From: Rozella allomycis CSF55
Lineage: Eukaryota; Rozellomycota
Length of the DNA stretch: 64,000 nt
NCBI GenBank assembly: GCA_000442015.1
Contig: KE560959.1
Coordinates: forward strand, 186,001-250,000
Direction of reading: 5' to 3'
The notes beneath the pieces were generated by a model that saw only the letters and a list, made by a program, of their open reading frames with translations, did no database searches and was not told the origin of the DNA. This document shows positions 1 through 64,000 of this stretch, one piece after another. The position numbers were made by a program, and so were the translations under genes. Within the stretch, counting starts at the first letter, position 1. Every line of letters begins with the position of its first letter.

Positions 1-276
1 AAGTCAAAAGTAACGTTCCATACAGGATTGGTTTGTTTTCGACAAACAGGAGTAGTTTTAGTTTGTTCACCATCAACTGTAATAATAACGAATGGGTCTG
101 GCGATCCTATCTCTCAACTATTAGTGTAGTTTACGGAAAATATGCTGTTTATATAAATTGCTTGCATTTAAAACTGTCTTTATAATATAATCATATTGTA
201 CCTGTTAGCCTTATAGTCTTTGGTTGTCTAAATTTACGAAAATAAATAATCTTACAAAGACTCTGGTGAAGCCATT
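1..276 (-). CDS. NEDD4/Rsp5-family HECT E3 ligase, N-terminal C2 domain (partial)
   Basis: Only the 5' end of this gene is in the window; it runs off the left edge. Four exons (257-276, 202-227, 135-173, 1-106) joined across introns of 29, 28 and 28 nt give a protein starting MASPESLQPKTIRL. It continues as a C2 domain containing [28 protein letters not shown] and NPVWNVTFD. The DPF...VDGEQTKTT...NP.WN pattern is characteristic of the calcium- and lipid-binding C2 domain of Rsp5/Nedd4/Itch ubiquitin ligases. The WW and HECT domains expected downstream are outside the window, so the ligase assignment rests on the C2 alone. The family ubiquitinates membrane cargo. The start is the first ATG of a 20-nt first exon. 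It is divergent from the P4-ATPase gene, with 144 bp between start codons. Confidence 0.72.
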
Positions 277-420
277 GAACTTAGCCACAATCTATTTTCG
301 AATCAAATGAAATAATATCAAATGTGAATATGCGAGTAAGAATAAAATTATAAAAATGTTTAAATATCTGTTGTTTATCTTTGTGTGTGTATAATCTCGA
401 AAATTAATTCGGGAAATTTC

Positions 421-3400
421 ATGAATTCTCCGGATGAAACCCACACTGAAAAACCAGAAGAATGTCGATATATAAATACATCTGACGCTGATAACAAAAA
501 CTTATTTCCCGATAACCGAGTTCGGACTGCGCGTTATACGTTATATTCATTTTTACCAAAACAATTGTTGTATCAGTTTTCCAAGATTGCTAATGTGTAT
601 TTTTTGTTTATATCTGTGCTTCAAATGATACCGGGACTATCACCGACTGGAACATGGACTACGATAGTTCCACTTTCTGTATTTGTGGTACTTGGTATGT
701 TGCGAGAAGGCTATGACGATCATAAGAGATATCAGCAGGATGATGTTGAAAATAATACGCCTGCGATTGTTATGAGGAAAAAGGATGATAAGATGGAATG
801 GGTGACAGTTCCATGGTGGGATGTGAGAGTTGGCGAAAAGTTGATTGTGAGAAACAATGAATTTTTCCCAGCGGATATATTATTGTTGAATTCTAGTGAG
901 ATTGAAGGGGTGTGTTATGTTGAGACTGCGAATTTAGATGGAGAAACCAATTTGAAGAGCAAAGAGTCGCTGGACGTGACTGTTAAAGCAGCGTGGACGG
1001 AAGACCATTTAAAGGAGTTGAATAGTAAAAACATGGAATTGTTAGAATAGTGAATATTAAAGTGCAATTGCCAGATAATGATTTGTATAACTTTGATGGG
1101 GCGATTGTATTGACTGAAAATGGAGAAGAGATTAAGCGACCTGTTGGGATTAATCAGTTGTTGCTTAGAGGGAGTCAGTTGAAGAAGACAAGTTTTATTT
1201 ATGGGGTTGTTGTTTATACTGGTGAGGATACAAAGATTAGAAGGAATGGAAATGCCAATATCAAGAGTAAAATGTCTGTGATGGAAACGAGAATAACCAA
1301 CAGAATAATAGCGATGGTGTTTATATTTGTATTGATGGTTGCACTAATTTCATTTCTAGTTTTTATATTCCAGAATGGAGATTTGCCATGGTATGTTTCT
1401 AGCCAAACTACTGCCGATTTAGCGATGCAGTATTTTACGTTTGTAGTTTTGTACAATACGATGATTCCAATTTCATTGTATGTTACATTAGAAATTGTTA
1501 GAATGACGCAGGCATTTTATATTGACAGTGACGTGGAAATGTACTGTGCTGAATCTGACACCCCTGCCAAAGCGAGGACTAGTTCATTGAATGAAGATTT
1601 GGGGCAAATAAGTTATTTATTCTCTGACAAGGTAGAAATAAATTGAAATAACGATAGACGGGAACATTAACTGAGAATAAAATGATAATGCGATATTTTA
1701 CAACAAAGGGGATGTTGATACAACAGGGGTTGGTTGATGGTAAAATAAAACTGAAATAAATTTGTAGAATCGATGAAGATTAAGAGTGAAAAGGTTATAT
1801 TGGATCCAAGTAGGGAACAAAAAGAGATGATGGTTGAGTTTATGCAGTGTTTGTCACTTTGTCACACTGTGTTGCCTACAATTCCAGAACATTCTGTAAT
1901 CACTAAGCCATCAGAAGATAAGAATGGAATAACAATGAACAAATTCAAAACACTTGATGAGAGTGAAAATGGGTATTTCAAGTCTATAGAGTACCAAGCA
2001 ATGTCACCAGATGAGGTAGCATTGTTGAATGGAGCCAGGGATAATGGGTTTGTATTTCACCAAAGAAGGAATAAAATGGTTGTTATTAGAGAAGTTGATG
2101 TTGATGTTGAATATGAATTGTTGGATGTTTTAGAGTTTTCATCATCTCGAAAGAGGATGTCGACTATTTACAGAATGCCGAATAATAAAATAATGTTAAT
2201 ATGCAAGGGTGCTGACAATGTGATAACTAGGAGGCTAAAGAGCGATAATGATATCGCAAGGGAATTAAAAGACAGAAGCAATAAAAAGAATAATGAAAGT
2301 AATTTAGAAATAGAGAAATATAAAAATGATTTAGAGAATAATAAAAATGAGTTAAATGATTTAACATTTGAATTGATTGATTTAATGGCAATACAAGGCT
2401 ATCGAACCTTGTTGTATGGAAAACGTGAAATTTCAGAAACTGAATATAAAGAGTGGAAAAAAGTTTATCAAGATGCGTGTTTGACTTTGAATAATAGAAA
2501 TGAAGAGATAGAGAAAGCATGTGAGTTGATGGAAAGAGATTTAATATTGGTTGGTGGAACAGGCATTGAAGATAAATTGCAGGACAAGGTTGGAGAAACG
2601 ATTGATTTATTAAAGAAGATGGGAATAAAAGTTTGGGTGTTGACTGGCGATAAAAGAGAAACGGTTATTAACATTGGCAAAGCGTCATCAATTATTAAAC
2701 CAAATTCTGAGATATTTCAATTGAATGAAAAAGGATCAATAGAAGAAAATTTGAATTTTATATGGCGAGATTTGAATAAGAGAAATGAGAGAGTCAAAGG
2801 TGAAGGTGAACAAGTTGATGTTAATGGTGAAGTCAAAGTTAATGAAGAAGTTAAATACATCAAAGTTGAAGTCAAAGTTGAAAGTGATCAAGACGCAAAA
2901 GCTAATATTGAGGTTCCCCATGTGAATAAANGAGATAGAGAAAGCATGTGAGTTGATGGAAAGAGATTTAATATTGGTTGGTGGAACAGGCATAGAAGAT
3001 AAATTGCAGGACAAGGTTGGAGAAACGATTGATTTATTAAAGAAGATGGGAATAAAAGTTTGGGTGTTGACTGGCGATAAAAGAGAAACGGTTATTAACA
3101 TTGGCAAAGCGTCATCAATTATTAAACCAAATTCTGAGATATTTCAATTGAATGAAAAAGGATCAATAGAAGAAAATTTGAATTTTATATGGCGAGATTT
3201 GAATAAGAGAAATGAGAGAGTCAAAGGTGAAGGTGAACAAGTTGATGATAATGGTGAAGTCAAAGTTGAAAGTGAGCAAGACGCAAATGCTAATATTGAG
3301 GTTCCCCATGTGAATAAACGCCAAGGTTTAATTTATAATTTGATAGTTGATGGACAAGAATTAATTGAGATTGAAGAGAATCCAATTTTGCTTGATAAAT

Positions 3401-4616: not shown

Positions 4617-6097
4617 TTATTTCTTTAATTGAAACTTTTCAATAATAGATTCAGTCGTTAAACTCTTTGGTCTCTCAATTGGAAATCCAAGAGCTCGGTT
4701 CCAAATCAATCCACTCAACACTCCCAATGAACGCGAAACTCCAAACAACACAGTATAGAAATCTTGTTCTTTCAATCCATAATATTGAAGTAAAACTCCA
4801 CTGTGGGCATCAACGTTGGGCCATGGATTCTTTGTCTTGCCATGCTCTGTCAACACATTAGGCACAATGTTATACAACTGACTCACCAACTTAAATAATT
4901 TATCATTAGGCAAATGCTTCAATGCAAATTCTCGCTGGCAAATATATCGCGGATCTACTTTCATCCCACCTTAACTCTTACCAGTCTTTCTCAACACCGC
5001 ATGTCCAAATCCAGGCACCACTTGTCCATTATTCAATGTATTCCAAATATATTCCTTAATCTTTTCATCACTGGGATTATCTCCAACATCCTCTTGAAGC
5101 TTCAACGTCCATCTCAACACTTCCTGGTTAGCCAATCCATGCAACGGTCCAGCTAGCCCATTCATGCCAGCTGCAAATGATAAATATGGATCACTCAACG
5201 CACTGCCAACTAACTGCGTCGCATGTGCTGACACATTGCCTCCCTCATGGTCAGAATGTATACTCAAATACAATCTCATCAACTCTACAAATTCAGGATG
5301 CTCAAACCCTAGCAACTTGCAAAAATTTGCAGACCAATCCAATTTAGAATCAATCTCTCCTATCTTGCCATCCTTAAATACATTCCTATATATCTTGGCG
5401 GCAACCAACGGAAGTCGGGCAATCAAATCATTCGCATCCTCAAACGCATACTCCCAATACAAATTCTTGGAAATCCCCTCATGATACGCTCTCGCAAATG
5501 AACTCTCCGTTTGCATAGCATTCACCGCCACACACAGCTGCGTCATGGGATGCATCGTATTCGGGCATCGGTCAATTATATCCCACACATGTATGGGCAC
5601 CTTTGCACGCGCCGCCCAATCTTCACTAAGCATCTTCACTTGCTCCTTGGTAGGTATCTCTCCAGTCAACAACAACCAAAACAATCCCTCAGGTAATGGT
5701 TCCTCTCCGCCAGGGGCACTAGGAAGTCGCTCCTGACACTGGGGAATTGTCAGTCCTCGGAATCTTATCCCCTATTAAATTGCTTCAATGATTCATACCT
5801 CTTCAGGATCCAATAGAGAGGTTTCATAGATAAGCCCCTTAATTCCTCGCATCCCTCCATATGCCTACTACATTACATTCAATTATTTACCATATCTACA
5901 GTCACATTGCCGAGAGTCTTTTCCCCATACTCTGCTCTCACCATCTTTACCCTCTCTTGTTGTTTTGGGATTACGTCACAAAGAGTTTCTTTCAAACTCT
6001 GATATCTTTCCTGCTAATCATAAATTACCTTGGGACGTGTGCCATAAAACGCTCTGCCTCGATGACCAATGGTTCGTCTTATTGATGTTGCAAACAT
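4617..6097 (-). CDS. Citrate synthase, mitochondrial
   Basis: First enzyme of the TCA cycle: condenses acetyl-CoA and oxaloacetate. Five exons (5891-5998 is the second; others 6029-6097, 5799-5864, 4982-5771, 4617-4954) joined across introns of 30, 26, 27 and 27 nt give a continuous protein aligning end to end with animal mitochondrial citrate synthase. Visible motifs are [50 protein letters not shown] (catalytic His region), [27 protein letters not shown] (catalytic His) and [14 protein letters not shown] (catalytic Asp). The N-terminus [19 protein letters not shown] is Arg-rich without acidic residues, as expected for a matrix-targeting peptide. The start is the only ATG of the first exon. 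Its presence shows a working TCA cycle, unlike mitosome-bearing microsporidia. Confidence 0.97.
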
Positions 6098-6245: not shown

Positions 6246-7753
6246 ATGAAATTTCCAATGCAATCAAACGAACAGGCTCGCAACTTGTTAAAGTTTATTG
6301 AAAAGTCGCCTTCTCCATTCCACGCGGTAGAAGAAGTAAAACAAAAATTAATTGCTGTTGGATTTAAAGAGCTAAGCGAAAGAAAATGTTGGCCTGTATT
6401 TAAACCCTCCGAAAAGTACTTTTTCACCAGAAATAGCTCGTCAATAATAGCTTTTCATATAGGATCCAAATACGTAAATAATATTTCGATATCTTATGAA
6501 GAAACCAGGCAATGGTTTTAGTATCATCGCTGCCCATACGGATTCTCCGTGTTTGAAAGTTAAGCCAATCTCAAAAATTGTAACGAAAAACTATCTTCAA
6601 ATCGGTGTACAAACATATGGGGGTGGTTTGTGGCACACATGGTTTGATCGAGATCTCTCTGTGGCTGGCAGGGTCATTGTCGAGGAGAATGGCTTAAAAG
6701 AAAGACTCGTTAAAATTGACAGGTATATATATATTCTGCATAAAATTTTGATCCATCTTAAGGATTCCTACATTGGCTATACATTTAGACCGCTCTGTTA
6801 ACGAAGGTTTCAATTTCAACAAGGAATCAAATTTCGTTCCCATATTTTCCTTGGGTTGTGCTGATGAAAAATCCAAAAATCACCACGAACAATTTTTACA
6901 GCTCCTGGCAGAGGAATTGAAAGTCCAGTCTAATCAAATACTTGATTTCGAACTTTGTTTGTATGACACTCAAGCACCTAATTTTGGGGGATTGAATAAT
7001 GAGTTTATTCAATCTGCACGCTTAGACAATTTGTTGATGTCTTATATAGCGATGGAAGTACCTTTGTCAAGAATTGTAACATTAGTCCTTTATGCAAAGT
7101 GCATCAAATAATGAACAAGAAAATATAACAATGACAGCCTTATTTGATAATGAAGAAGTCGGTTCTAGTTCTGCTTATGGGGCTGGCTCAAATTTACTAA
7201 AAGTATCGTTGGAAAGAATACTCGAAAGTCTTGAATGTCAAGTAGGATATTGTTCAAAAGTTGAAATAGAAACATTTTCATGAAACTATTCAAAGAAGTT
7301 ACTTGATCAGCGCTGATTGCGCTCATGCCATTCACCCAAATTACAGGTATCGATTAGAAGCTTCTTAAATAAGTGACAAACATGAACAGAATCACGCGCC
7401 AAGACTCAATGAAGGGATTGTTATTAAAGTGAATGCCAATCAAAGGTACGCTACTACTTCACTTACTTCGTCTATATTCAAGCAGATTGCCAACAAAAAC
7501 AATATTCCTTTCCAAGAATTCGTAGTAAAGAATGATTCTCCTTGTGGAAGCACCATTGGTCCCATACTATCAACATTAATTGGGATAAGAACGATCGGTA
7601 TTGAATTAATATTGTAAGAACTAAGATGTGGGAAATGCACAGCTTAGCATGCATTCCATTAGAGAAATGGCCGGTGTAAATGATGTTTTACTGTCAATCA
7701 ATTTGTTTAATAGCTTTTATCGGGACTTTCCAGAGATTGATAAACAATTATAA
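6246..7753 (+). CDS. Aspartyl aminopeptidase (M18 family)
   Basis: Cytosolic or vacuolar zinc aminopeptidase removing N-terminal Asp/Glu (DNPEP / yeast Ape4 family). Exons joined over introns of mostly 27-28 nt give the whole family architecture: FIEKSPSPFHAVEE near the N-terminus, IIAAHTDSPCLKVKP (zinc-binding His/Asp), YGGGLWHTWFDRDLSVAGR, SARLDNL, ALFDNEEVGSSSAYGAGS (catalytic Glu pair), LISADCAHAIHPNYSDKHE, KNDSPCGSTIGPILS and the C-terminal QLSMHSIREMAG with a zinc ligand His. About 440 residues, normal for M18. Start chosen at the ATG at 6246, just before the conserved N-terminal block. One intron (from 6723) has two competing 3' ends, see findings. The gene ends 8 bp before the stop codon of the convergent bZIP gene. 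Confidence 0.95.
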
Positions 7754-8547: not shown

Positions 8548-9594
8548 TTATTGAAATGCAAAATCAAAAGACTTGACAGTAACGTTGCCTCTTCCAGAAA
8601 ATCCAGTTCCTTCACTATGAATTTTAAGCAGATCTTTATCTTTAAACTTTTTTTCACAACAATAACAATTATTTGTCTTTTTTAGGATTTTATCGCCGCA
8701 AACACTGCAGTACACATGGCTGCAACTTTTTACAACTATAATTTCCATGGCATTGTTGAATGTCTTTAAACAACAAGGGCAAATCTTTTTGTGTTGGTCA
8801 TCGCTAAGGGTAAAATTGACAGATATAAGTTTTTTAATCCTTTAAAATGTATAATCTAAAGTTACGTTATAGGCTGGCTATCCAACGGGCACTCTACATA
8901 TCGCTTAACAGATTCAGCCTTTATCTCCCCCTGTTTTTCTTCTGGTGCTAATGAGGGAACCCAAAAACTAGGAAGTAGATGTTTCTTTTTTGTACTTTCT
9001 TCTTGTTCAATAAACTCTTTTGCCTTTTCAATCTCGCTCTGGACTTTTTCTCCAAAGCTCGTTACGAGAGTTTGATCCAATTCACCTTTCTGAAAAGATG
9101 ATGAAAATGTTACCATTCGTATATTCTATTCGTAGTCTTTTATTTTTAGGGGCATCTTGTTGGGTTATGTTCAATCTGGATTTTGGGGCTGTGTGGTTTT
9201 GAGAGTCTTGGAACGATTGAATGACTAAAGCCTTCGCCTTTTCTTCTAAAAGTTTATTTTTCTCCTCTTTCTTCGTTTCTTGATTTTTAAATAGTGTTTC
9301 TTGCCTATTGATTTCATTCTTTTGCGACAAGATATTTTTATACCAGCACTCTTTGCAAGCCATATGACCATGTGAACTAATTCTTTTCAAAATAATACCA
9401 TACCACATTAAAGGCTCTCTGACAGATTGCAGACATAAAAAACATGAGTCAAAATCACGAAGGCTATCTTTTCCAATACGGTGCTAATTTGACTAAGAAC
9501 ATATTGGTACCTCTTTGGTGCCATATTTTAGCTTGGACTTTTCGTGATAAGTAAAAAAGGAGGACGCAGTGTTGTTTTTGGAATGCCTACCCAT
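8548..9594 (-). CDS. NOSIP-family E3 ubiquitin ligase / RING-like protein
   Basis: Homologue of nitric oxide synthase-interacting protein, a nuclear protein with a split U-box/RING-like fold that in other eukaryotes associates with spliceosomes. Exons join over introns of 27, 28 and 26 nt. The N-terminus GRHSKNNTASSFFTYHEKSK and RDFDSCFLCLQSVREPLM match the family start. ILSQKNEINRQ lies in the coiled linker, LLPSFWVPSLAPE is the hallmark of the middle, and CPLDSQPIT, ICPCCLKTFNNAMEII, CSHVYCSVCGDKI and EGTGFSGRG make up the C-terminal half. About 290 residues, the usual size. The start ATG at 9594 is the only one giving the conserved N-terminus. It lies only 34 bp from the start of the divergent gene at 9629. 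Confidence 0.9.
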
Positions 9595-14269: not shown

Positions 14270-15173
14270 ATGTTGGGCTCCGGTGGGTAATTCAGCATTT
14301 TATTGTTTAAAAAGATCTGATGATTTGGCACGCTGGATAAAGAAACGAGTTCATAACACCGAGAAGTGTTTTGCGTTCTTTGAATCAGAACTTGGGGGTT
14401 ACCTAAGGAATCAAGGACGTAATATAAACATTTACATTGTCAAAGGAACGCGAGAAAAGAATTTGAAAATATCAGGTGTTTTAAAAAACATTTCTGATCT
14501 TGAAACACCAAACTTGAATGCTGCTTTAGAAAATGTGGCACTTGCCTTTGATGCAGTTGAGCAGCATAGAAAAATTATGGTAATAGACTTTGTTGGACCT
14601 GATTAGATTGACAGGATGGATGTTCGTGCAAAACAAAACCTACATTTATATAAAATAATATGTAAAAGTGTAAAGGTAAGTGGCTCACAAGATCATTATT
14701 TTAAAGGATGAACTGAAACTGAGAGAAAATGCAGTGACAAAAGAAACAAAGAAGCAGCAGGCACTTGAAAAAGCTACGATTAAATCAGGAATTGATAAGA
14801 CTAAAATAGTACATCTAATTAAGGAAATATAATGTTAGGTTCAAGTAACTAATGATTATTTTAATGTTAGTCACAATTAGAGTTGGCAGGGGCAAATCAA
14901 GAAGTTGTTCACAGCAACCTTGCTCTAACTGAACATGTTGAACGCTTTGAAACACAGAAAATGTTAGATATCAAGGTGATTTTTATATTTTCCATTAAAA
15001 AGTCCATTTTAGAAGAAATTCTCTATTCTGAAATGGTTTTTCACGCAAAAAGCCTCGAACTGTATTCTGAAGCTAAAAACATACTTCAAGCGGCAAATAT
15101 AGAAGAAGACATTGAATATATGAATGAAAGATTAAAGTTTACCCATGAAGAAGATTTAATAAAAAAACAATAA
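14270..15173 (+). CDS. CIBAR/FAM92-family BAR-domain protein
   Basis: Ciliary BAR-domain protein that in animals bends membrane at the ciliary base with Chibby. Exons spliced over introns of 28, 27, 31, 30, 26 and 27 nt give about 240 residues. FAM92 landmarks are visible: ISDLETPNLNAALENVALAF, TKKQQALEKATIKSG, VQSQLELAGANQEVV, and VERFETQKMLDIK followed by EMVFHAKSLELY. Two unusual exon features occur: a 6-nt microexon (14839-14844, Val-Gln) and an in-frame, stop-free 27-nt intron (14976-15002) that a naive ORF scan would translate. Ungapped alignment to the family supports removing both flanking introns and this one. The start is the ATG at 14270, because the first exon is only 17 nt. It ends 14 bp from the convergent NAC-alpha gene. 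Confidence 0.85.
14839..14844 (+). other. 6-nt microexon in CIBAR/FAM92 gene
   Basis: Six bases (GTTCAA, Val-Gln) flanked by a 30-nt intron (14809-14838) and a 26-nt intron (14845-14870), both GT...AG and both of the normal size for this genome. Including it gives KIVQSQLELAG, which aligns without a gap to family members (ITQAETEL-type). Treating 14809-14870 as one 62-nt intron would lose two residues and be twice the usual length. Confidence 0.6.
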
Positions 15174-24114: not shown

Positions 24115-24942
24115 ATGTTCACCAGTTTTTCAAACTATCTGTCACACTTTACGCAGCAATATCGTTGTTATTCTATGATTATGCTAAGAAAAGGTGACCG
24201 TCCTGAACTAAACCACGGAGGAAAAAGTAAGATCTTTGACTAGTTCAAACCAGTAATTATGCCTCCATCTGCCCTGGAAAGGCTCGGTAAATAATATTTA
24301 CAGAAAATAAATAGCTGGCTTAAATATAGCGTATCCCATGTTGTTTCAGCTTAGGAATGAAGAAACAAGGAAGGTCACGCACGCTGGTGTTTTGGAATTC
24401 ATTGCTGAAGAAGGTAGAGTCTACATACCACAGTGGGTATTTTAGTTGACAATTATTTATTAGATGATGGAAACTTTATTTCTTCAAGAAGGTCAGTTAA
24501 TATCATTGGAAAATGTTACATTACCACTGGGGAAGTTTATTAAAATACAGCCTCAATCTATTGACTTTTTGGATATACATGATCCAAAAGCAGTGTAATG
24601 AAGGTAATTTTAAAGCAATAGATTGGAAAATTCTCTACGAAATTTCGCTGCCCTCACTCAAGGAGACATTATAAGTATATTGTACAACCAAACAGTTTAC
24701 GAACTGTTATTGTTAGAGGTTCAACCATCGGGTAGTGGCATCTGTATTCATGAAACCGATTTGGAGGTAGATTTCGCTGCACCTTTAGGATATGTTGAAC
24801 CAGATTATCAAAAACCGAGAGGAAAGTCTATTGTAAGATTGATGAGTGTAATTGACCATAGATAAATTCACTTGAGATATGCTCTTTACCTAGCAAATCG
24901 TCGTTCTTAGGGAAAGGACAAAAATTGAGAAATAGAAAGTAA
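24115..24942 (+). CDS. UFD1: UFD1, ubiquitin fusion degradation protein 1
   Basis: Subunit of the Cdc48/p97-Ufd1-Npl4 segregase that extracts ubiquitinated proteins for proteasomal degradation, for example in ERAD. Introns of 27-29 nt are removed at six points. The protein reads FTQQYRCYSMIMLRKGDRPE, GGKIIMPPSALERLAGLNIA, YPMLFQLRNEETRKVTHAGV, LEFIAEEGRVYIPQWMMETL, FIKIQPQSIDFLDIHDPKAV, LENSLRNFAALTQGDIISI and DFAAPLGYVEPDYQKP. This is the complete double-psi barrel of Ufd1. The C-terminus FLGKGQKLRNRK matches the conserved Npl4-binding tail end, with the usual variable region shortened. The protein is about 230 residues, shorter than human UFD1 (307) because of that linker. Confidence 0.95.
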
Positions 24943-24950
24943 AGATCACT

Positions 24951-25178
24951 ATGAAATTCAAAAGGAAAAAAGAAACAGATGATGCTTCTGGAGTAAATAC
25001 TCCCAATCTAACGGACGAAGAAATTCGAGATCTTTTAAAAGGCGATGAGCCCCTTGCATTAACAATCCCGAATAACAAGTTATTTTTTGGGTTCCCAGTT
25101 ACTCCATTTGCTAAGGGGAAAGATCTACCTGGCGATAATGTACCTGAAGGTCGGGTTTTGAAGAAAAGGCCGGAATAA
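24951..25178 (+). CDS. Small protein of unknown function, 75 residues
   Basis: Single-exon ORF beginning 8 bp after the UFD1 stop. It encodes a lysine-rich start (MKFKRKKETDD), then NLTDEEIRDLLKGDEPLALT, FFGFPVTPFAKGKDLPGDNV and a basic end. The proline-containing FGFPVTPF block looks ordered or motif-like. It could be an independent tiny gene or, less likely, a misread C-terminal extension of UFD1; a splice from the UFD1 stop region does not keep the frame. No family recognised. The following gene, NDC1, starts only 24 bp downstream, so if real it has almost no regulatory space. Confidence 0.4.
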   Translation: MKFKRKKETDDASGVNTPNLTDEEIRDLLKGDEPLALTIPNNKLFFGFPVTPFAKGKDLPGDNVPEGRVLKKRPE

Positions 25179-25202: not shown

Positions 25203-27018
25203 ATGTCTTTGTACAAGTGTCTGGTGGAGTCTTTTGCAAGGAAGAGAGTTTGGGGATTATCCGTATATTTTTTCATAATCTCTATGTCTTTTCCAGTTTT
25301 TAAGATGCTTGGCCTAGTAACCTTAAATGTGATGTCTTTTGGCATACTGCTGTTAAACGGGTTGTTTATGCTATACAACTTAAATTTATGTACCAAATGT
25401 ATGTTATGTCAATCTTTATTTATTAAGATGACAATGGCAATCATTTAAGACTGGCTACATGTATTGGATTTTATGTTATCTCAGGGCTTGTTCTAGACAT
25501 GTTTATTTTCAATGGGTCCGAATCTTTGCTAGTATATCCTGAAGGGTAATCGATTTAGTTTTTTTGAATAGTGGTTTTGGTCCTCCTGAACTCAATGAGA
25601 GGATTGTGTATTTTAGAATATTGATGGGAATTGTAGCAATGAAGGGCGCAGTGGATAACTATAACTATCAACCAAACTTTCGAAAGGTTCAAGTAAATAC
25701 ACAGATAAACATCGATAGATTCCTATTGGCCAAAGTTTAAAAAGATTGATCCTTAGTTCCTGTAATTTAGAAATCTTGCCTTCTATTTCGATTGCAGTCT
25801 ATTTTTATTTAATATATTTTCTAAGCAATGCAATGCCTTATATTATGGGGAAGAAGGTTGCCGAAATTTTCTTCACGTAAACCTTAAGAACATCACTGAC
25901 GTAGACTTTCTGACTATCATCGTAGCACAATAAGATTTTATCACCTTGGATTGATTCTTACTGGATTTAAAATTTCGTTTATTTCTTGTTGTTATTGGAG
26001 AATATTGCGTGGAGTTTTTGACCTTTTAATGTTTCAATATCGTTGTTTAACAGATGCTCATCAGAATGCTGCTCTAGTTGATGGGCTCTTGGAATGTGAT
26101 CAAAATGTCAAAGTAATTTTTTTTCAATTGCAATACAGAATTTTTGCTCACGAGAAATTTTGATGATCAGTAAATGGGATGAAGATCGCCGCAAAGCATT
26201 TTTCACCGATATTGATGATCTACCCAGACTTTACCAAAGATTACTCAATAATGTTTTATTGGAAATCAATAATATGACGACTATTCTGAACTCTGAAGTT
26301 TCTCAGATTTACAATCATGCAAAGGTCCCTATGAAAAAAATATCAGTCAGTTCAAAAATCAATGGCACCGTTTTAGTTAAGAGCGAAAGCTTTATTGATC
26401 AGCTTATAGGATTGGTATTCGGGCATGAAATACTTGATGAGACCGTTTCAAAGGAAGAATACTCAGCTCCGATGCCTTCTCTCACATCAATTCCATCAAT
26501 TTTTGTTTCCAAAGTTAATTCTTCTAGAAAAAAAGAAGATACGACTTTTGTAAAATCGTCAGTCCCTCGTGTCCCCTTGTTTCATGACACGCAATTGGCG
26601 AAGCAAATGAATGTACGGGCTAGTTGGAATCGCGTGTTTTCTCATAAGGATTGCGCTTTAAATCTTGTTGAAGCGATATCCTTACTAACATTACATTCAG
26701 TAAAGGAAGATCCGTATGGATTAGTACATTCGTCGGTTCCTAATATCCTATGCGCATTTTTAGATTTCCAGCAAGCCATGGAAACGTATCATAAGCGTGT
26801 TATTCTCCATTATTTAAACGTGAGGTCTTTTGGTTATCAAGTATTGGTTTTGCCCATTTATGAAACCCTTGATGGTAAATTCTCTTTTTCTGACCTTATT
26901 AGTAATCAACCAATGCTCTTACCGGATTGTAACAGCATTTTATGAGCATATGGACAAATACAATGTCGAAGATCATTATAGAGCTCGAATTCAAGCTTTG
27001 CTGGACTTTGAAAAATAA
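25203..27018 (+). CDS. Nucleoporin NDC1
   Basis: Transmembrane nucleoporin anchoring the nuclear pore and, in fungi, the spindle pole body. Removing introns (29, 26, 26, 28, 26 and 34 nt) connects an N-terminal domain with about six membrane helices to a soluble C-terminal domain. Membrane segments include SVYFFIISMSF, VMSFGILLLNGLFML, GFYVISGLVLDMFIF, SISIAVYFYLIYFLSNAM and LGLILTGFKISFI. The soluble part reads LTDAHQNAALVDGLLECDQN, KWDEDRRKAFFTDI and KEDPYGLVHSSVPNILCAF, then LDFQQAMETYH, landmarks of NDC1 (the PYG.VQ..LP.IL..LL.L..A motif). About 550 residues. The apparent stop at 25740 is inside an intron. The end, EDHYRARIQALLDFEK, is reached through a 34-nt intron. Confidence 0.88.
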
Positions 27019-37919: not shown

Positions 37920-40900
37920 ATGTCTATACCATTAAAAGAGTTTAAAAGCAAAAATTCGGATGCCGAGGATTTACCAATGTTAAATAGCCTTTCATCTCTA
38001 ACGTCTTCAAATTTTGATCAGCCAAAAAACAATGGGTTTAGATACAAGTTTAGACAATTTTTTAAACGCAAAAAGAAAGAAAAATTTAGAGAAAGGACAT
38101 TCAAGTTAAACGGTAGCGTATTTTATAAACGTTAAAAGGGTCTGTGACATTTGACAAGTTTTCACCCAATATAATAAGAAACCAGAAGTATACAATCTTC
38201 AATTTTATGTTCTTGATATTATTTGAACAAGTAAGAGTTTAAACGTAGATGTAAAAGTTTCGATTCTTTCTTAACACGTATTTCTTGCTGATTGCATTAT
38301 CACAGCTGATTCCTATGTTGAAAATGGGTATAAATATATGTAAAGTTTGTTTAAGGTTACCTTGTAACATATTTCGGGCCTCTTGGATTTGTGTTAACGA
38401 TAACTATTTGCAAAGAAGCATTTGATGATTATCAGCGGTATAAAATAGACAAGGAAAATAATTCACAAAAATATGAAAAGCTTACGTTAAATGGTACCGT
38501 TACGATTCCCAGTTCTGAGATTAAAGTTGGAGACTTGATTTTGGTGCATAGGAATCAAAGGGTTCCAGCGGACATGATATTAATGAGAACGACTGAAAAA
38601 TCTGGGACATGTTTTATCCGAACTGATCAATTAGATGGTGAAACAGATTGGAAACTGCGGATAGCAGTTCCTACATTTCAAAGGTTAGGGGACAATAGAG
38701 ATATATATTCGTATGATGCGAGTGTATATGGTAATAGGAGTTACGTTACATTAATATAGCGGAAAAGCCCCATAAGAATATTTATAGTTTCGTTGGCACA
38801 ATTTCGTATGAAAGAAACGTAAGGATTTAAAATGGGTTTAAAATCAGGGGATGACAGAGACAGAGCCTTTGAATGCAGAGAACATGATATGGGCGAATAC
38901 TGTAGTTGCGTCAGGTGTTGCTTGTGGGTGCGTTGTTTATACAGGCCAAGACATGCGGGCGATAATGAATACAAATAGACCATCAACAAAAAGAGGGAAA
39001 ATAGATTTAGAGTTGAATAATTTATCGAAATTTCTGTGCATTTTTAGTCTTTTTATTTCATTTATTCTTGTGGCGTTGAAAGGGTTTGTATCATCGTGGC
39101 TGATTGACACTTTTAGATTTTTGATCTTATTTTCATACATCATACCAATTAGTTTACGCGTGACATTGGATATTGTCCGATTGTATTATTCTAAATGTAT
39201 TGAAAAAGATCTAGACATACTTGGAACAAAAGTCAGATCTGGAAATCTACCCGAGGAGCTGGGAAGAATTGAGTATTTATTGACTGACAAAACAGGCACT
39301 TTGACAAAGAACGGTAATTGAATACTTTGTTGCTAATGAAAGAAATGGAACTAAAGAAGCTTCACATGGGTACAATATCATTTGGAAATGAATCCATCAA
39401 TGAAGTAGCGAATCATTTAGATTCTGCATATTTTTTCATATTGTGTAATTTAGTTTTTCTTGTTTTAGTAGCGAATAAAGGTGATAACAGAATGAGACAC
39501 AAGAAGCGAGATATTTCAACGAGAACAAAAGATCTCGTTCAAGCTCTAGCTTTGTGTCACAACGTTACTCCAATCATTGAAGATGGCATTCTTTCTTCGT
39601 ATCAAGCGTCATCGCCTGATGAAATCGCAATTGTGAACTGGACTCAAAAGGTTGGCCTCACGTTGTGCTACAGAGATATTCACTCTATACACATTAGATT
39701 ATCCAACAATCAAATACTGGAATACGAAGTTCTCTACATTTTCCCTTTTACTTCGGAATCAAAAAGAATGGGGATCATAGTGCGCGAAAGGCTTACAGGG
39801 GATATTTATTTTTATCAAAAAGGAGCAGATTCGGTAATGACAAAAATTGTTCAGTACAACGATTGGTATTCACTAAATTCATTTGTTTTTAGGCTGGATG
39901 AGGAGTGTGGAAATATGGCTAGAGAAGGCCTTCGAACATTGGTCATCGCTAGGAAGAAACTCTCGGGTGAAGCCTTTGAAGAGTTTGAGCAGGCGTATCA
40001 AAACGCTCGCATTAGCAAACAATCCAGAAATGAACTAATGCAACAAGTTGTTTCAAATATGCTAGAATTCGATTTAGAACTTTTGGGACTTACAGGGGTT
40101 GAAGACAGGTTACAAGATGACGTCAGAATCACTTTGGAATTACTCAGAAACGCAGGAATTAAAATATGGATGTTAACAGGCGACAAAATTGAAACTGCAA
40201 CAAACATTGCTGTATCAACAAAACTTGTCTCCAGGTCTCAATCCTTTCATATTGTTTCAAAAAGTAGTTTAAATGTTTTATTTATTCTAGTTAATTCAAC
40301 ATTTGAGGCGCAAGAAGCCATAGACAGTCTTAGACAACGCCTTGACCATTGCCTAGTCATCGACGGCCAATCTCTTCAAGTAAGTTTTATTAATTATCTT
40401 TACAGTTTTTCATAGATCATTTTTCTGATGTTTTTATGGAATATTCAACCAGAATGACAGCCGTCGTTTGTTGCAGATGCAGTCCAACACAAAAAGCTGC
40501 AATTGCAAAATTAATAATTAAACACACAAATAAGAGAGTATGCTGCATAGGCGACGGTGGAAACGATGTGTCGATGATTCAAGCTGGGCATGTAGGCGTG
40601 GGCATTGAAGGCAAAGAAGGAAGGCAGGCATCATTGGCTGCTGATTTCAGCGTTCAACAATTCAGCGTTTTAACTAAACTTTTACTTTGGCATGGTCGCA
40701 ATAGCTACAAACGATCATCCAAAGTAAGCCAATTTATCATTCATAGAGGCCTTGTTATTTCGATTATGCAGGCAGTCTTTTCTGCAATCTTCTATTTCGC
40801 TCCTATCGCATTATTTAGAGATATGCTGGCTGTAGGCTACTCAACTTATTACACATCCCTACCAATAATGTCCTTGATGCTGGACCACGACGTCACTCAG

Positions 40901-41454: not shown

Positions 41455-44400
41455 ATGAGCGACATCATAATTTTATCTTCCGATGGAGAAGAGCAAGATG
41501 TTATAAGATTGGATAGTTCACCTATTATGGTTTCAACTTCTTTGATTAACCAAACCGAAATGCCTCCATTATCGTTACCAAGAGTTAAAAGTCCACAAAG
41601 AAAGAGAGCAAGAGAAGAACTTATAGAGCTGAATAGTGACACCGAAGAAGAGAGCCCTGTGATATTACCTGCAGAAAATACACAGTGTTTCTGGATAGCT
41701 AGAATTTTAGGGAGCACTTATTCAAAACCTGAAGAAAAGGCTCTAGTGTACATTGATTGCACATCTACCCAGTACAGAGTGCATGACTCGGGAACCAACG
41801 TAATATTTTTCAGTATGTTTATTAGAACGTTTATGGTGTTCTTGACAAATCGTCATCGAAATTATTAGCAAACCTGATAAAGGTTGGATTACTTAATGCG
41901 ATAAGACTAAAGGGAAGAATACATAAAGTATATGTCGAGGTAAATAATTCCAAGAGCCTAAACTAGAAAAACAAAGTTATTTTTACATCAGATTTGATTA
42001 TAACTATTCCTTGCTTGATAAAAGACATATTAGCCATTGAAAACAATCTGAATTCCTATGGAAGGTTTTTTCCCGGTCCCAATGCACTAGAACTATATGA
42101 AAGGGGATTGCAACAGAAAGCGGAAATCGAATATGATAAAATTCTAAATAGTACTATGATCTAGTTTGGAATATAGGTATAAAATTAGATGATCGCTTTT
42201 CTATTCCTACAAAAAGGGCAGATTTTATAGTGCCAGACTCACAGACAGAGCAGATGAGGTCTCTTCAAGATGTGTTTTCAAAAGCAAGAAATGGCGTTAA
42301 TTTGATTCCACGTAATGTTGACACCTCAAAAATTGACATTCGAAGTTATCATAAAAAGTCGCCAGATGCTTCTGGAAATGTTCAGGATCACTTTGACTCT
42401 ATCATGCAAGATATGTCACATGCTCTAAAGTTTCCAGAACTAATTGAGGATCCTTTAATAAAGACAAAGCTTTTAAAACATCAAAGGCAGGGATTGTTTT
42501 GGCTGCGGCAGCGAGAAAAAGACTTTGTGCACGTTGAAAATGAAGATTCCTTAATTCCAACGTATTGGCGTAAAGTGTTTGAAGGATTCACTGGATACAA
42601 AAATTTGATAACAGAAAAAGTGATGAAAACTCCTGATATATTCAAGGGCGGAATATTGGCAGACGATGTAATGCACATTTTATTGAATTTTAAAGATGGG
42701 ATTAGGAAAGACGCTTTCTATAATATCATTAATTGTTTCTTCATTGTCTGAGGCTAAAACTGAGGTCAATAAAATAAACTCTACTAAGCCTCCATTCAAA
42801 AGAATAACGACCGGTGCACCTTTCTTTCCTGTTGGTTCCAAATTGTCTTTGAAAGTTATACAGGGTCACCCTATTTCCTTTTTTCCAAGACGACTATCAT
42901 TCGGCACTTTGATTGTATGCCCTTTATCCTTGTTGTCCAATTGGGAAAGTCAAATAGATCAACATACAGTGAATGGAACACTTAAATACATTATTTATCA
43001 TGGCAAAGCGAGGAAATTATCAGTTTCTGATTTACTTGCGTACGATGTTGTAATCACCACATTCCACGTGGTGGCTAATGAACTAAACAAGGCGGTAAAT
43101 TCTGGATGCACAGCTTATGGCGATTACGAATACGTTTGTCCTCTGCATTTGATAAGATGGTATAGAATAGTACTAGTAAAATGTTATTCTGACGATTAAG
43201 TAAGGATGAAGCTCACAATATCAAGCAGCCGAATTCCTTGATGGCTAGAGCTTGTACCAATTTGTCAGGCGAGAGGAGATGGTGCTTGACAGGAACACCT
43301 CTTCAAAATAGACTGTCTGATCTCTATTCCTTGGTGAGATTTATGAAAGTTTATCCGCTTGTTGAAAAGGAGCAATTTGCGCGCCACTTTGGAAGTGACA
43401 CGAGAATAGCAAATATACAAAAGCTACAAGTATTACTTTGTTTTTTTCAATAAAGACTTTTATCAAGAGTATTGTATTGCGCCGAATGAAAGATCAACTG
43501 ATTGATGGGAAGCCTATTATATCTTTACCTCCCAAAAAGGATCACATTATAGCGGTAACATTGGATGAAGAAGAGGCAAGTCTTTACGACCAGGCTTTTG
43601 CAGCCACACGAAAGGAGTTTGATAAGATTATTAAAGATGCCACGATTGTAATTTGATTCTTAATTTAATAGTAGAAAAATAAATATGTTCATATTTTTGA
43701 ACTATTGTTGCGGTTGCGACAACTGTGTACCCACTATGCCATGTGCATAAAATGGCTATTGAAGATTCTGCCCAACCACCCCCTGGTCAAGCAATACTCT
43801 AAATTTGAATTTGAGGAAGAAGATGACACTTGCTTTGTATGCCTTGGATCAGCTATAGATCCAAAGAGAATTAAATCGTGTGGTCATATATTTTGCGAGT
43901 CTTGCATTCAAAATGAAGGATCCAATAAGTGCCCAATTTGTAAGATAGAGTTTAAGAGTGAAGCTTTATTGCCGGTGAAGACGAAGGAATATTTTCCTAA
44001 AGATTATTTAAAGCGTGTTTCCCTTTTGTCGCCATCATCGAAAACAAGAGCGATTGTATCTGATTTGAAGAAGGTGACGGGAGAGAAAACTATTATATTT
44101 TCTCAATGGACGAGTTACTTGAGTCTTCTTGAATATCAACTGTTGGAGGCTAAAATAAAGTTCATTCGCTTTGATGGATCCTTGAGTCGTGAAGACAGGG
44201 AAATTGCCATTGACAAATTTAATCGCGATTCTTCCATCAAAGTATTTCTAATTTCGTTAAGAGCTGGTGGGGTAGGATTGAACCTTACTTCAGCTTCCCG
44301 TGTGTACATAATGGACCCCTGGTGGAATCCAAGCGTTGAAGATCAAGCGATAGATCGCGTATATAGAATTGGACAGAAAAAACCCGTCAATACATTTCGT

Positions 44401-44565
44401 TATGTAATTAAAGATTCCATAGAGGAAAAGCTTTTGGAAATACAAAAAAATAAAGCCGAACTTGCTGCTCAAACCCTAATGGATAAGAAATCTACTAGAG
44501 ACAACCTCGAAGTTAAAGGAAGCTGGGGAATAAACCTTAAAGACTTGAAAGCTTTGATGTCTTGA
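41455..44565 (+). CDS. Rad5/HLTF-like SNF2 helicase with RING finger
   Basis: SWI2/SNF2 ATPase with an embedded RING E3 domain, the architecture of Rad5/HLTF, which polyubiquitinates PCNA in damage tolerance (Rad16 is the alternative). The N-terminus is acidic with SIM-like hydrophobic/Asp runs (SDIIILSSDGEEQDV, EELIELNSDTEEES). Helicase motifs: LLKHQRQGLFWLRQRE, GGILADDMGLGKTLSII (Walker A, interrupted by a 28-nt intron after ADD), LIVCPLSLLSNWESQID, DEAHNIKQP (after an intron at about 43180), WCLTGTPLQNRLSDLYSLV. The RING is CFVCLGSAIDPKRIKSCGHI, then FCESCIQNEGSNKCPICK. The helicase C half: IIFSQWTSYLSLLEYQL, RFDGSLSREDRE, SLRAGGVGLNLTSASRV and DPWWNPSVEDQAIDRVYRIG. The stop TGA overlaps an AATAAA. 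Convergent with TPX2. Confidence 0.92.
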
Positions 44566-53385: not shown

Positions 53386-53574
53386 TTAATAAATACAATA
53401 TTTGTAATACAAATTCTCCTTCAAACGGGACCAAGTGCGTGATCCGAGTAACTTGGTGAAACTTAGATTACAGTTCTCAACTTAAAAGTCTCTGTCTCCC
53501 CCAATGCTTTTTTTCATCTGAAACTTCACCTTGAAATGCTAAATTTCCCATTTTGACCCTTGCACTTTCAAAAA

Positions 53575-54157
53575 TGGGCAAAAGGACTCTTTATATTGCT
53601 GGTGTAAATCCTTCAACACGAGCTCGTGATTTGGCATACGAATTTGAAAGGTTATATTGGCCTATTTTTTGAAATAGGTATGGACGACTTGTAAGGTGTG
53701 ATATTCCTGCACCACGACCAGGAAGTAGACGCGTGTAAGTGTATTATGATGTTTTTAGAAGATATGCATTTGTTGAATTTGAAGATGATCGCGATGCTTC
53801 TCGTGCGTATCGCGAAATGGACGGGCGGTATGTTGATCGTAGTCGTATTACTGTTGAAGTAAACTGCATTGAATTTTCATATATTAGTGGGCTAAAAGTA
53901 CTCGTGGAAGCGGATATCGCGATAGGTCTCGTTCTCCTAGAAGACGCAGCAGGTCCAGAGATAGAAGAAGAAGTGAAAGAAGGGAAGAAAAGTTAGAAAA
54001 CGATGAAAGAAAAAATGAAGATAATCAAGATAGAACCAATGATACCTCTCTTGATAATGAGAAAAACAAGGTAGAGCTGGAAAGTCGTGACGAATCAAAC
54101 GCGGAGCCAAATAATGAGGTAGAATCAAAAGAAGAATCATTAAAAAATGACGAATAG
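53575..54157 (+). CDS. SR-type splicing factor, one RRM
   Basis: Serine/arginine-rich RNA-binding protein. Introns of 27, 24 and 29 nt are removed. The single RRM reads KRTLYIAGVNPSTRARDLAY (RNP2), YGRLVRCDIPAPRPG, RYAFVEFEDDRDASRAYREM (RNP1) and DGRYVDRSRITVE. This is followed by a short RS region (YRDRSRSPRRRSRSRDRRRS) and an acidic Asn/Glu-rich tail ending SLKNDE. The architecture is like small SR proteins and S. pombe Srp1/Srp2. With introns of this size, splicing factors of the host are of particular interest. Confidence 0.9.
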
Positions 54158-59595: not shown

Positions 59596-59676
59596 GACAA
59601 TGTGTCCGAGTGGTTAAGGAGATAGACTTGAAATCTATTGGGATTTCCCGCACAGGTTCAAATCCTGTCGTTGTCG
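59596..59676 (+). tRNA. tRNA-Ser (anticodon TGA)
   Basis: An 81-nt cloverleaf: acceptor GACAATG pairs with CGTTGTC (one G-T pair), discriminator G. A-box TGTCCGAGTGGTTAAGGAG is typical of tRNA-Ser. The anticodon arm AGATAGA-CTTGAAA-TCTAT gives loop ctTGAaa, anticodon TGA (reads UCA). A long variable arm (TGGGATTTCCCGC) confirms serine class II. The B-box GGTTCAAATCC is intact. No intron. A run of seven T follows immediately. Confidence 0.95.
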
Positions 59677-62463: not shown

Positions 62464-62537
62464 ATGTATTTGGGCGTTTGCGATTTGGCATCTGAGATTT
62501 CTTACTCTAATAACTGAAACCACTTTTTAATTCTTCT

Positions 62538-62744: not shown

Positions 62745-63177
62745 TCACTTTATTTTCTGTTTTTCGTCCTTGTCTATCAAAAATATACCCATTAAAATGA
62801 CACCTATCCCGATCAACCATAAAGTGTCAATGTTCTCATGTAAAAATGTTTTGCTGATAATTGCCTAATGAATGAATAATCCAAATATTATTACTGTAAA
62901 AATAATGTTGTTTGCTAGTGTGAAACTAGATACTTGAATTGTCGACACTGACGCAGACAATGATCTTGTGTAAAAATACCACATTAATATATTGTATAAT
63001 ATATTCAGGGTTATTTCTGAGATTTTTATGGTGGGAGACCGCTTCATTTAGTCATCGAGAAACTCCTACTGTGATACTATGTGATTCTTGAACGAACGTA
63101 GAGAGAAAAAGTTTTGCAGTCAAAGAGGTGAAGGCAGCGAAAAACCCAGCAGCGGCAGAAAGCAACATCCACTTCAT
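62745..63177 (-). CDS. TMEM42-like EamA-type membrane protein
   Basis: Small four-helix membrane protein of the drug/metabolite transporter (EamA) superfamily, TMEM42 type. Starts MKWMLLSAAAGFFAAFTSLT, AKLFLSTF (helix 1 with a family-like FGALASLFAKL pattern). Across an intron of about 36 nt comes EITLNILYNILMWYFYTRSL, SASVSTIQVSSFTLANNIIF, then after a 30-nt intron AIISKTFLHENIDTLWLIGI, GVILMGIFLIDKD. The segment MW.F..RSL..SVST.QV......N matches TMEM42. A short protein, about 120 residues, half the size of full DMT transporters, as for TMEM42. Transport function is not established for the family. Confidence 0.65.
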
Positions 63178-63236
63178 GAGGATTTAAAATTGAAAAATCA
63201 CAATTTACTATTTATTAAATATTAGCAAAAAATACG

Positions 63237-64000
63237 TTAGGCAGAATGATGAGGGTTTTCAAATTTCTTTGCTGTTTTACTTTGTTTATTCAAATGTTCT
63301 TTTCCGAGCTTATTCCAGGGATAGGCAGTGTTTTCATGTAAGACATGTTTTTTTAACTGAACTGGGACAGAGTATGCCCTTTGTCTCGGCTTTATGGGTA
63401 GAGAAATATATTGTTTTCCTTCTAAAAGCTGTCTACGATATTGGAGTAAATTTTGGTAATCCGTAGCACGCTGCGTTTGTTTTTCAATGACTTGGGCCTT
63501 CAATTGAAAGGCGTAATTTCGAGAGTCATTGATGTCTTTTGGTGGCTAAATTAACATCCGGTATAGAAAGTACTTCAGGATGTAAAATATCTGTGGCGGT
63601 ATGTTTGCCATTCATTTTCGCAACACCCAAATCCCATAATTCAGGAATAGACTGAAACATTTGTTTCTATAAACTTACTTTGGGTTCATTGATCACATCT
63701 TCAAAGTCAGGTGCAACCTACATAAGTTACAGTTATTGCCGTTACTCTGCGATTAGTATTGTTAGTAGGAGCGCCAGCACCTTTGATAAATAAAATCAAT
63801 GTATACCTGGTTTGCCAAAAGGATAATAGTTCAAATTTTTCCTGTCAAGCTCTTCCTCTTGTGTTCTTAATTTATCCACTATTGATTGCTTTTGCAGTCT
63901 TATCATATCCAAATCCAGTTTATATTTCCTGTTTCCCTCTTGGTCCTTTGTAGCTTCTAATTTAACAATAATATTATAACATTATACCAATAGGCAACGG
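63237..64000 (-). CDS. Coiled-coil protein, CSPP1/CCDC66-like motif (partial)
   Basis: Runs off the right edge, so the 5' end is missing. Introns of 31, 26, 28, 27 and 28 nt are removed. It encodes a charged helix EATKDQEGNRKYKLDLDMIR, LQKQSIVDKLRTQEEELDRK, then NLNYYPFGKPGGAGAPTNN, VAPDFEDVINEPK, SIPELWDLGVAKMNGKHTAT, DILHPEPPKDINDSRNYAFQ, another helix EKQTQRATDYQNLLQYRRQL and a basic tail. The helix followed by (N/Y)PFG+PG.GAP is a motif of several centrosomal or ciliary proteins such as CSPP1 and CCDC66. That would fit the ciliary theme, but the assignment is tentative. Confidence 0.55.

What the first reader, a model, noticed from the sequence alone, without database searches (positions are those of the whole stretch)
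1..64000. Uniformly ultra-short spliceosomal introns (about 24-35 nt) throughout
In gene after gene, interrupted reading frames become continuous conserved proteins when GT...AG segments of 24-35 nt are removed. Examples: citrate synthase 30, 26, 27, 27; P4-ATPase 26, 26, 28; NOSIP 27, 28, 26; aspartyl aminopeptidase 28, 28, 28, 27, 28; NEO1-like 26, 27, 28; SDF2 26, 26. Many carry a branch-like TAAC/TAAT or TGAAAT within about 5-12 nt of the 3' AG. This is among the shortest intron populations known in fungi-like organisms, approaching those of ciliates and nucleomorphs. It means simple ORF calling will fail on this genome.
Basis: partly seen in the sequence, partly recalled or inferred. Interest (0 to 1): 0.75.

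Follow-up and report, generated by a model that had tools for sequence, protein, structure and literature searches.

The report
Rozella's uniformly tiny introns
Nearly every intron we could find in this parasitic relative of fungi is only 26 to 31 letters long, so short and so weakly marked that length itself seems to be part of the signal, and some public gene models are broken because of it.

Summary
The window comes from Rozella allomycis CSF55 (citrate synthase 100% identical). The core observation holds. A de novo gene finder with a flat length prior still puts the introns in one sharp peak at 26-30 nt (46 of 127; 269 of 364, with 15 at 20-25), and GT-AG beats all 255 other terminal pairs there. 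Of 24 junctions called in four genes, 18 align gap-free with solved homologues. Independently of gene calling, uninterrupted ORFs avoid sense-strand GTA...AG pairs spaced 26-30 nt (229 against 304 expected, p 4e-6), but not at other spacings or antisense. Corrections: the range is 26-31 rather than 24-35, and the proposed branch motif (TAAC/TAAT) is not enriched (95 against 98 expected). Donors are GTA(A) without a +5 G, although U1, U2 and U6 keep normal pairing sequences. This is the short-intron, weak-signal syndrome known from Paramecium and nucleomorphs. Two introns (28 and 29 nt) appear by homology to end in TG, and the two public models concerned are damaged. A length ruler tolerant of TG ends is the boldest reading, unproven. 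No RNA data were available.

The parts
5999..6028 (-). citrate synthase intron 1, 30 nt (an 18-nt in-frame alternative exists)
   Evidence: spliced protein equals public P0001; junction lies outside the structure alignment
5865..5890 (-). citrate synthase intron 2, 26 nt, ends TAGTAG
   Evidence: gap-free junction against 1al6
5772..5798 (-). citrate synthase intron 3, 27 nt
   Evidence: gap-free junction
4955..4981 (-). citrate synthase intron 4, 27 nt
   Evidence: gap-free junction
1025..1050 (+). P4-ATPase (DRS2-like, name not searched) intron, 26 nt
   Evidence: also in the flat-prior, no-motif set
1632..1657 (+). P4-ATPase intron, 26 nt
   Evidence: restores the DKTGTLT motif (motif recalled)
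1740..1767 (+). P4-ATPase intron, 28 nt
6474..6501 (+). aspartyl aminopeptidase intron 1, 28 nt
   Evidence: gap-free junction
6723..6750 (+). aspartyl aminopeptidase intron 2, 28 nt, GT...TG end (called 40 nt GT-AG de novo)
   Evidence: 28-nt excision gives SILR where 8 of 8 aligned fungal homologues have four residues ending LR; the 40-nt alternative deletes them
7058..7085 (+). aspartyl aminopeptidase intron 3, 28 nt
   Evidence: junction lies about five residues from a loop gap
7242..7269 (+). aspartyl aminopeptidase intron 4, 28 nt
   Evidence: gap-free junction
7347..7373 (+). aspartyl aminopeptidase intron 5, 27 nt
   Evidence: gap-free junction
7598..7625 (+). aspartyl aminopeptidase intron 6, 28 nt; retained in public model P0121, which stops inside it
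   Evidence: gap-free junction; P0121 ends TIGIELIL
24227..24253 (+). UFD1 intron, 27 nt
   Evidence: gap-free junction
24287..24314 (+). UFD1 intron, 28 nt
   Evidence: gap-free junction
24437..24463 (+). UFD1 intron, 27 nt
   Evidence: gap-free junction
24595..24621 (+). UFD1 intron, 27 nt
   Evidence: gap-free junction
24833..24861 (+). UFD1 predicted intron, 29 nt
   Evidence: region too divergent to assess
24939..24964 (+). UFD1 predicted intron, 26 nt
   Evidence: region too divergent to assess
38113..38138 (+). NEO1-like ATPase intron, 26 nt
   Evidence: outside the alignment
38231..38257 (+). NEO1-like intron, 27 nt
   Evidence: gap-free junction
38328..38355 (+). NEO1-like intron, 28 nt
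   Evidence: gap-free junction
38731..38759 (+). NEO1-like intron, 29 nt
   Evidence: gap-free junction
38819..38847 (+). NEO1-like intron, 29 nt
   Evidence: gap-free junction
39314..39342 (+). NEO1-like intron, 29 nt
   Evidence: gap-free junction
39445..39471 (+). NEO1-like possible 27-nt stop-free intron, not called de novo
   Evidence: poorly matching stretch in the alignment; several GT...AG pairs fit there, so the exact cut is uncertain
39866..39892 (+). NEO1-like 27-nt stop-free intron, not called de novo
   Evidence: a 9-residue insertion (27 nt) against the homologue coincides with the only GT...AG pair of 24-32 nt there
40264..40290 (+). NEO1-like intron, 27 nt
   Evidence: gap-free junction
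40380..40405 (+). NEO1-like intron, 26 nt
   Evidence: gap-free junction
9086..9113 (-). NOSIP-like intron, 28 nt
8840..8865 (-). NOSIP-like intron, 26 nt
   Evidence: flat-prior, no-motif set
27111..27847 (+). PRELI-family gene with predicted introns of 26, 31, 26 nt
   Evidence: Pfam match 15-169 of 217 once spliced
14270..15173 (+). FAM92 gene with predicted introns 28, 27, 27, 31, 30, 26
   Evidence: Pfam match 8-225 once spliced
25499..27018 (+). NDC1 nucleoporin gene with predicted introns 26, 26, 28, 26, 28
   Evidence: Pfam match 19-442 once spliced
33637..34605 (+). cytidylyltransferase-like gene with predicted introns 26, 29, 26, 27
   Evidence: Pfam match
36538..37440 (+). kinase-like gene with predicted introns 33, 28, 27, 26, 27
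   Evidence: Pfam match
41455..44565 (+). RAD5-like helicase gene (name inferred by eye, not searched) with predicted introns 26, 27, 26, 28, 29, 26, 27
53574..54157 (+). RRM/SR-like gene with predicted introns 27, 27, 29
   Evidence: RRM match

Best explanation
The segments are ordinary U2-type spliceosomal introns of Rozella allomycis that have shrunk to one narrow size class (26-31 nt) and lost most of their sequence signals. Recognition most likely works by intron definition: U1 reads GTA(A), and a fixed short span brings the 3' end within reach, so that distance carries much of the specificity that a branch consensus, a +5 G and a pyrimidine tract carry elsewhere. The sharp floor at 26 nt is read as the steric minimum of this spliceosome. 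Shown: length peak, floor, GT-AG specificity, homology-checked junctions, avoidance of decoys in exons, and snRNA genes with canonical pairing sequences. Inferred: actual splicing in RNA, the steric cause of the floor, and the use of distance by the machinery.
For: Length peak under a flat prior. GT-AG first of 256 pairs both in calls at 26-30 and in total model score. 18 gap-free junctions of 24 called in four genes; of the other six, four could not be assessed, one lies near a loop gap and one was a wrong call. Eight of ten spliced proteins exceed a Pfam cut-off. Exon avoidance: GTA...AG at 26-30, 229 against 303.9 (p 4.2e-6) in 96 ORFs of at least 200 aa, ratio 0.75 against a minimum of 0.90 in the control windows of the same frame; 12-19, 20-25, 31-34 and 35-40 near expectation; antisense 250 against 239; GT[CGT], ATG and GGA starts 1.02, 0.97 and 1.01. 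U6 and U2 above their Rfam cut-offs, U1 just below (69.0 of 69.5 bits); SF1, Slu7 and Prp18 present. Density 445 introns per 163.7 kb CDS = 2.7/kb agrees with the published 2.53/kb (PMC8476143, passage).
Against: No RNA evidence. The branch adenosine cannot be located. Under the flat prior 95 of 282 calls lie above 60 nt, about 0.3 per nt of length: they look like a noise floor but may hide real longer introns. With every terminal pair allowed at equal cost and no motif, the finder chose no GT-AG intron at all among 123: coding signal alone is weak. Exon avoidance is only about 25%, is absent at exactly 26 nt (85 against 83.9) and partly extends to 31; for GTAA alone it is weaker (50 against 65.2, p 0.03, equal to the lowest control window); the synonymous-codon shuffle also shows a deficit at 40-60 nt (z -4.6), so only the distance-specific contrast counts.
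Confidence: 0.93

Rival explanations
1. Frameshifts, sequencing errors or pseudogene decay rather than introns.
For: The assembly has local faults: 26 of 55 N runs have duplicated flanks.
Against: The interruptions have a fixed narrow length range, GT-AG ends and restore conserved proteins without gaps; errors would not peak at 26-30.
Confidence: 0.01
2. A mixed intron population in which the 26-31 class is one part and longer introns are common but invisible to an ORF-based finder.
For: Flat-prior runs give scattered calls above 60 nt. PMC8476143 discusses a conserved snoRNA-bearing RPL7 intron and names R. allomycis among species with a second RPL7 copy that lost it (passage), which implies some longer introns.
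Against: No second length peak is visible; candidates of 31-120 nt have a weaker donor (A at +3 in 0.48-0.50 against 0.87-0.89 for 26-30); no snoRNA family reached its cut-off in 249 kb.
Confidence: 0.06
3. The 3' splice site is simply the first AG at or beyond 26 nt, with no further ruler.
For: AGs before position 26 are passed over even 2-5 nt upstream of the used one; AG at 26-29 is rare (1 of 155 against 109 of 3216 upstream). In-frame alternatives three bases upstream show the same trend (12 of 200 before 26, 1 of 75 at or after), but there coding cannot decide the cut.
Against: With distance to the 3' end controlled the effect is not significant (1 observed against 3.26 expected, z -1.6; 3 against 3.98; 0 against 1.27 in three overlapping sets); GA falls too (2 of 155 against 144 of 3216); lengths stop at about 31, which a first-AG rule alone would not give.
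Confidence: 0.2

Closest known systems
Short-intron, intron-rich, weak-signal genomes: Paramecium tetraurelia, Bigelowiella natans nucleomorph, dicyemids (Irimia & Roy 2008, PMC2483917; passages and section 15 read)
   Same: Very short introns, fairly high density, 5' site largely restricted to GT(A) in the first two, no branch-point signature.
   Different: Rozella belongs to the fungal side of the tree; floor at 26 nt and mode 26-27 rather than about 25 (Paramecium) or 18-20 (nucleomorph); here avoidance of decoys in exons is measured.
Stentor coeruleus 15-16-nt introns (PMC9505925, passages read)
   Same: One rigid size class, AU-rich, no strong branch consensus.
   Different: Stentor introns have a nearly fixed branch-A position (10th of 15); none could be fixed here. 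Rozella introns are at least 10 nt longer.
Microsporidian introns, e.g. Encephalitozoon cuniculi (PMC2483917, passages read)
   Same: Short introns in a related lineage.
   Different: That study lists 13 E. cuniculi introns, mean 35.8 nt, with a strong TAAY branch motif; Rozella has thousands (extrapolated from 2.7/kb) and no motif found.
Rozella allomycis in the fungal intron survey of Lim et al. 2021 (PMC8476143, passages and section 14 read)
   Same: Same species, same intron density.
   Different: The passages read give density, not intron length or signals; supplements could not be read.

Membership tests
U2-type spliceosomal introns | GT...AG ends | tested here: met
   GT-AG best of 256 pairs; two homology-supported exceptions end in TG
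U2-type spliceosomal introns | Removal restores a conserved protein | tested here: met
   18 gap-free junctions of 24 called in four genes; Pfam over cut-off in 8 of 10 proteins
U2-type spliceosomal introns | Major snRNAs encoded | tested here: met
   U2 and U6 over cut-off, U1 69.0 of 69.5 bits; U4 and U5 not tested
U2-type spliceosomal introns | Branch site pairing with U2 GUAGUA | tested here: inconclusive
   YTNAY, TAAY and CTRAY not clearly above column shuffles; weak TTGAA/TTCAA excess only. A degenerate branch site would escape this test, as in Paramecium and B. natans
U2-type spliceosomal introns | Spliced in RNA | not testable with these tools
   No RNA reads held
Short-intron, intron-rich, weak-signal class | Introns mostly under about 35 nt | tested here: met
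   269 of 364 at 26-30 under a flat 12-60 prior
Short-intron, intron-rich, weak-signal class | High intron density | tested here: met
   2.7/kb, published 2.53/kb
Short-intron, intron-rich, weak-signal class | 5' site reduced to GT(A), no branch signature | tested here: met
   +3 A 0.87-0.97, +4 A 0.66-0.71, +5 G only 0.18-0.19; no branch motif found
U12-type introns | RTATCCTTT donor and TTCCTTAAC branch (motifs recalled) | tested here: not met
   Donors are GTAA; no convincing U12-type intron among the hits in 306,681 bases scanned, which include overlapping loci

The most novel reading that the evidence does not exclude
In Rozella the distance from the 5' splice site defines the 3' end: the spliceosome cuts 26-31 nt downstream and prefers AG but accepts TG at that distance rather than a downstream AG, and exons are purged of GTA...AG pairs at that spacing. 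Two cases fit: aspartyl aminopeptidase intron 2 (28 nt, TG; the AG that could be used instead is at 40) and a ZC2HC1C-like gene (29 nt, TG; next AG at 34, used by the public model with a frameshift).
Probability: 0.2. Interest if true: 0.8.

Novelty: new member of a known kind. Interest (0 to 1): 0.55.

Why it matters
Rozella is close to the root of fungi and related to Microsporidia, which lost almost all introns (placement and loss from the papers cited and general knowledge). A dense set of already minimal, weakly marked introns there suggests that introns may have shrunk before they were lost in that line, which can be tested in Paramicrosporidium and Mitosporidium. It adds a fungal-side case to a syndrome known from ciliates and nucleomorphs. 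Practically, public Rozella protein models can be damaged by missed or misplaced tiny introns, as in two of the three compared here (one of them chosen on suspicion). Surveys that exclude introns under 30 nt, as PMC10639083 says it does, would not see most introns of this genome.

Tried and rejected
Branch-site consensus: k-mer tests with dinucleotide and column shuffles gave no clear motif. First-AG-at-26 rule: suggestive before, not significant after, controlling for distance to the 3' end. Free-acceptor runs to count non-AG introns were too noisy; with one extra acceptor allowed at a time, TG gives 9 calls at 26-30 but CA also 9, TT 8 and TA 7, so TG is not special statistically and rests on homology alone. 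A third TG candidate in a PIN/SWT1-like gene has a PIN match across the junction but no solved-structure match, and stays unproven. Selection against stop-free 3n introns: introns of 27 and 30 nt contain in-frame stops more often (0.84, 0.94) than 26, 28 or 29 (0.60, 0.51, 0.64), but an ORF-based finder misses stop-free 3n introns, of which one or two surfaced in NEO1, so this may be detection bias and no conclusion is drawn. The first training run had an integer overflow bug and was discarded. Loss of Slu7 or Prp18, expected if the branch lay very near the 3' end (recalled argument), was not found. Predicted joins across 236, 194 and 92 nt in two window genes look like errors (not followed up).
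Full report
Identity. The window is G000:C101:186001-250000 of a 9.97-Mb, 213-contig assembly. Its citrate synthase is 100% identical to that of Rozella allomycis CSF55 on a 265,096-base contig, the length of C101. GC is 32-37% along the window, close to the 34.5% published for R. allomycis (PMC5701793, passage).

Test without assumptions about length. I wrote a semi-Markov gene finder, run on each strand and then merged, with a coding model trained on long uninterrupted ORFs and introns required only to begin GT and end AG, all lengths 12-400 equally likely. On 249,366 bases from eight contigs it found 127 introns in 57 genes scoring at least 30: 46 at 26-30 nt, one each at 21 and 22, none at 23-25, and the rest thinly spread. 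Adding splice-site profiles but keeping length flat gave 282: 26 (45), 27 (37), 28 (35), 29 (26), 30 (6), 31 (3), against 24 (4) and 25 (1); 95 lay above 60 nt, spread thinly. With a learned length prior there were 445 in 104 genes, 410 at 24-31. On 300,669 bases with a donor profile only and flat 12-60, 269 of 364 lay at 26-30, 15 at 20-25, 15 at 31-35, 48 at 36-60 and 17 at 12-19. Stretch by stretch, with learned motifs and lengths, 26-31 nt makes up 11 of 14 to 21 of 21 calls, 128 of 136 in the window.

Controls. Using each of 256 terminal pairs in turn, GT-AG gave 68 introns at 26-30; the other 255 averaged 5.6, and the best of them (TA-GG, 31) is the same excision shifted by one base. Total calls of any length differ less (142 against a mean of 95.6, maximum 132), so the specificity lies in the peak. 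With all pairs allowed at equal cost and no motif, the finder had too little power and chose no GT-AG introns at all (123 calls, 11 of them at 26-30; same call), which shows how weak the coding signal alone is.

Homology. Four spliced genes were aligned with solved structures (junction positions; citrate synthase through the identical public protein). Of 24 called junctions, 18 fall in gap-free alignment (citrate synthase 3, UFD1 4, NEO1-like 7, aspartyl aminopeptidase 4), four could not be assessed, one lies about five residues from a loop gap and one was a wrong call (below). Of ten spliced proteins scanned with Pfam, eight exceeded a curated cut-off; the NOSIP-like and PCF11-like ones stayed just under.

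Evidence from exons. If the machinery needs little more than GTA and AG at the right distance, coding exons should avoid such pairs. In 96 uninterrupted ORFs of at least 200 aa, sense-strand GTA...AG pairs spaced 26-30 nt number 229 against 303.9 expected from spacings 45-149 matched for reading frame (p 4.2e-6; ratio 0.75, lowest control window 0.90). Spacings 12-19, 20-25, 31-34 and 35-40 give 498/506.5, 375/372.8, 235/251.8 and 367/369.4; the antisense strand has 250 against 239; GT[CGT], ATG and GGA starts give 1.02, 0.97 and 1.01. With the ORF cut-off at 120 aa the ratio is 0.81 (p 2e-5), and 31-34 is also low (324 against 361). Split by the fourth base, GTAT is clear (92 against 127, p 7e-4) but GTAA alone is weak (50 against 65.2, p 0.03, no lower than its lowest control window). 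Position by position (ORFs of 120 aa and more) the dip runs from 27 to 31 and is absent at 26. A within-ORF synonymous shuffle gives z -6.1 at 26-30, but also -4.6 at 40-60, so only the distance contrast is specific. The dip is deeper where the interior is AT-rich (0.63 against 0.81 at 27-31, a range chosen after seeing the table).

Signals. Donors are (A)AG|GTAA with +3 A 0.87-0.97, +4 A 0.66-0.71 and +5 G only 0.18-0.19; acceptors are mostly TAG or AAG (224 and 141 of 416) with A favoured at -4. There is no pyrimidine tract beyond general AT-richness and no branch consensus: TAA[CT] in 95 of 407 tails against 98 expected; the best frequent words, TTCAA (22 against 9) and TTGAA (27 against 13), are modest. 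Yet the U1 gene reads ACUUACCUG at its start, U2 carries GUGUAGUAUCUGUUC and U6 carries ACAGAGA. The machinery kept its pairing sequences while the introns let theirs decay. SF1, Slu7 and Prp18 genes are present.

TG ends. My finder gave aspartyl aminopeptidase a 40-nt intron that deletes four residues present in all eight fungal homologues aligned; excising 28 nt instead restores them, but this intron ends TG. The public model P0121 also lacks those residues and then stops inside the last 28-nt intron. In a ZC2HC1C-like gene (L046), a 29-nt intron ending TG restores the zinc finger (Pfam match 161-183 across the junction at residue 176) and a long block shared with six homologues, gap-free at the junction against two of them and with one residue fewer than the other four. 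The public model P0241 runs instead to the next AG at 34 nt, shifts frame and ends early; it also starts with another, NAD(P)-binding domain. TG acceptors are known in human U2 introns (PMC2374985, title and start of abstract seen). Assembly error or polymorphism is not excluded.

Literature. Seven searches of the held library named Rozella; in the listings and passages that I saw there is no statement of R. allomycis intron length. Lists were capped (20 of 42 papers; 25 of 1,337), the genome paper of 2013 is not held and supplements could not be read, so it may well be in print. Novelty is therefore rated as a new member of a known kind; the citrate synthase introns at least are right in public annotation already.

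Noticed in passing
L043:1501-1633 (G000:C191:364863-364995): Candidate U12 minor-spliceosome snRNA: 36.4 bits, E 5e-5 over the genome, matching the model end to end but below the Rfam cut-off of 53, with GUAAGGAAAA and a GCCUACUUUGC loop as in the consensus. Three of 14 control genomes also gave sub-cut-off U12 matches at E up to 1. U6atac and U11-48K searches found nothing convincing.
   Followed up: partly
G000, eight places on eight contigs listed: TATCCTTN{4,34}TTCCTTAA (U12-type donor plus branch) occurs 8 times against 2 for the reversed pattern, hinting at short U12-type introns; the loci could not be fetched.
   Followed up: no
window 2931 and 56993; 55 N runs in 249 kb: Single Ns often mark unmerged overlaps: 26 of 55 N runs share at least 20 identical bases between their 800-base flanks, 14 of them exactly 50, against 0 of 201 random places. 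At 2931 a 253-base duplicate appears to split the P4-ATPase gene in two.
   Followed up: yes
window 39866-39892 and 39445-39471: 27-nt introns without in-frame stops (the second less certain), missed by ORF logic; if retained they would add nine residues unnoticed.
   Followed up: partly
window 6258-7753 (P0121) and L046 (P0241): Two public R. allomycis protein models are truncated or frameshifted at tiny introns.
   Followed up: yes
window 59596-59676: tRNA-Ser(TGA) gene, the only Rfam match over cut-off in the window.
   Followed up: no
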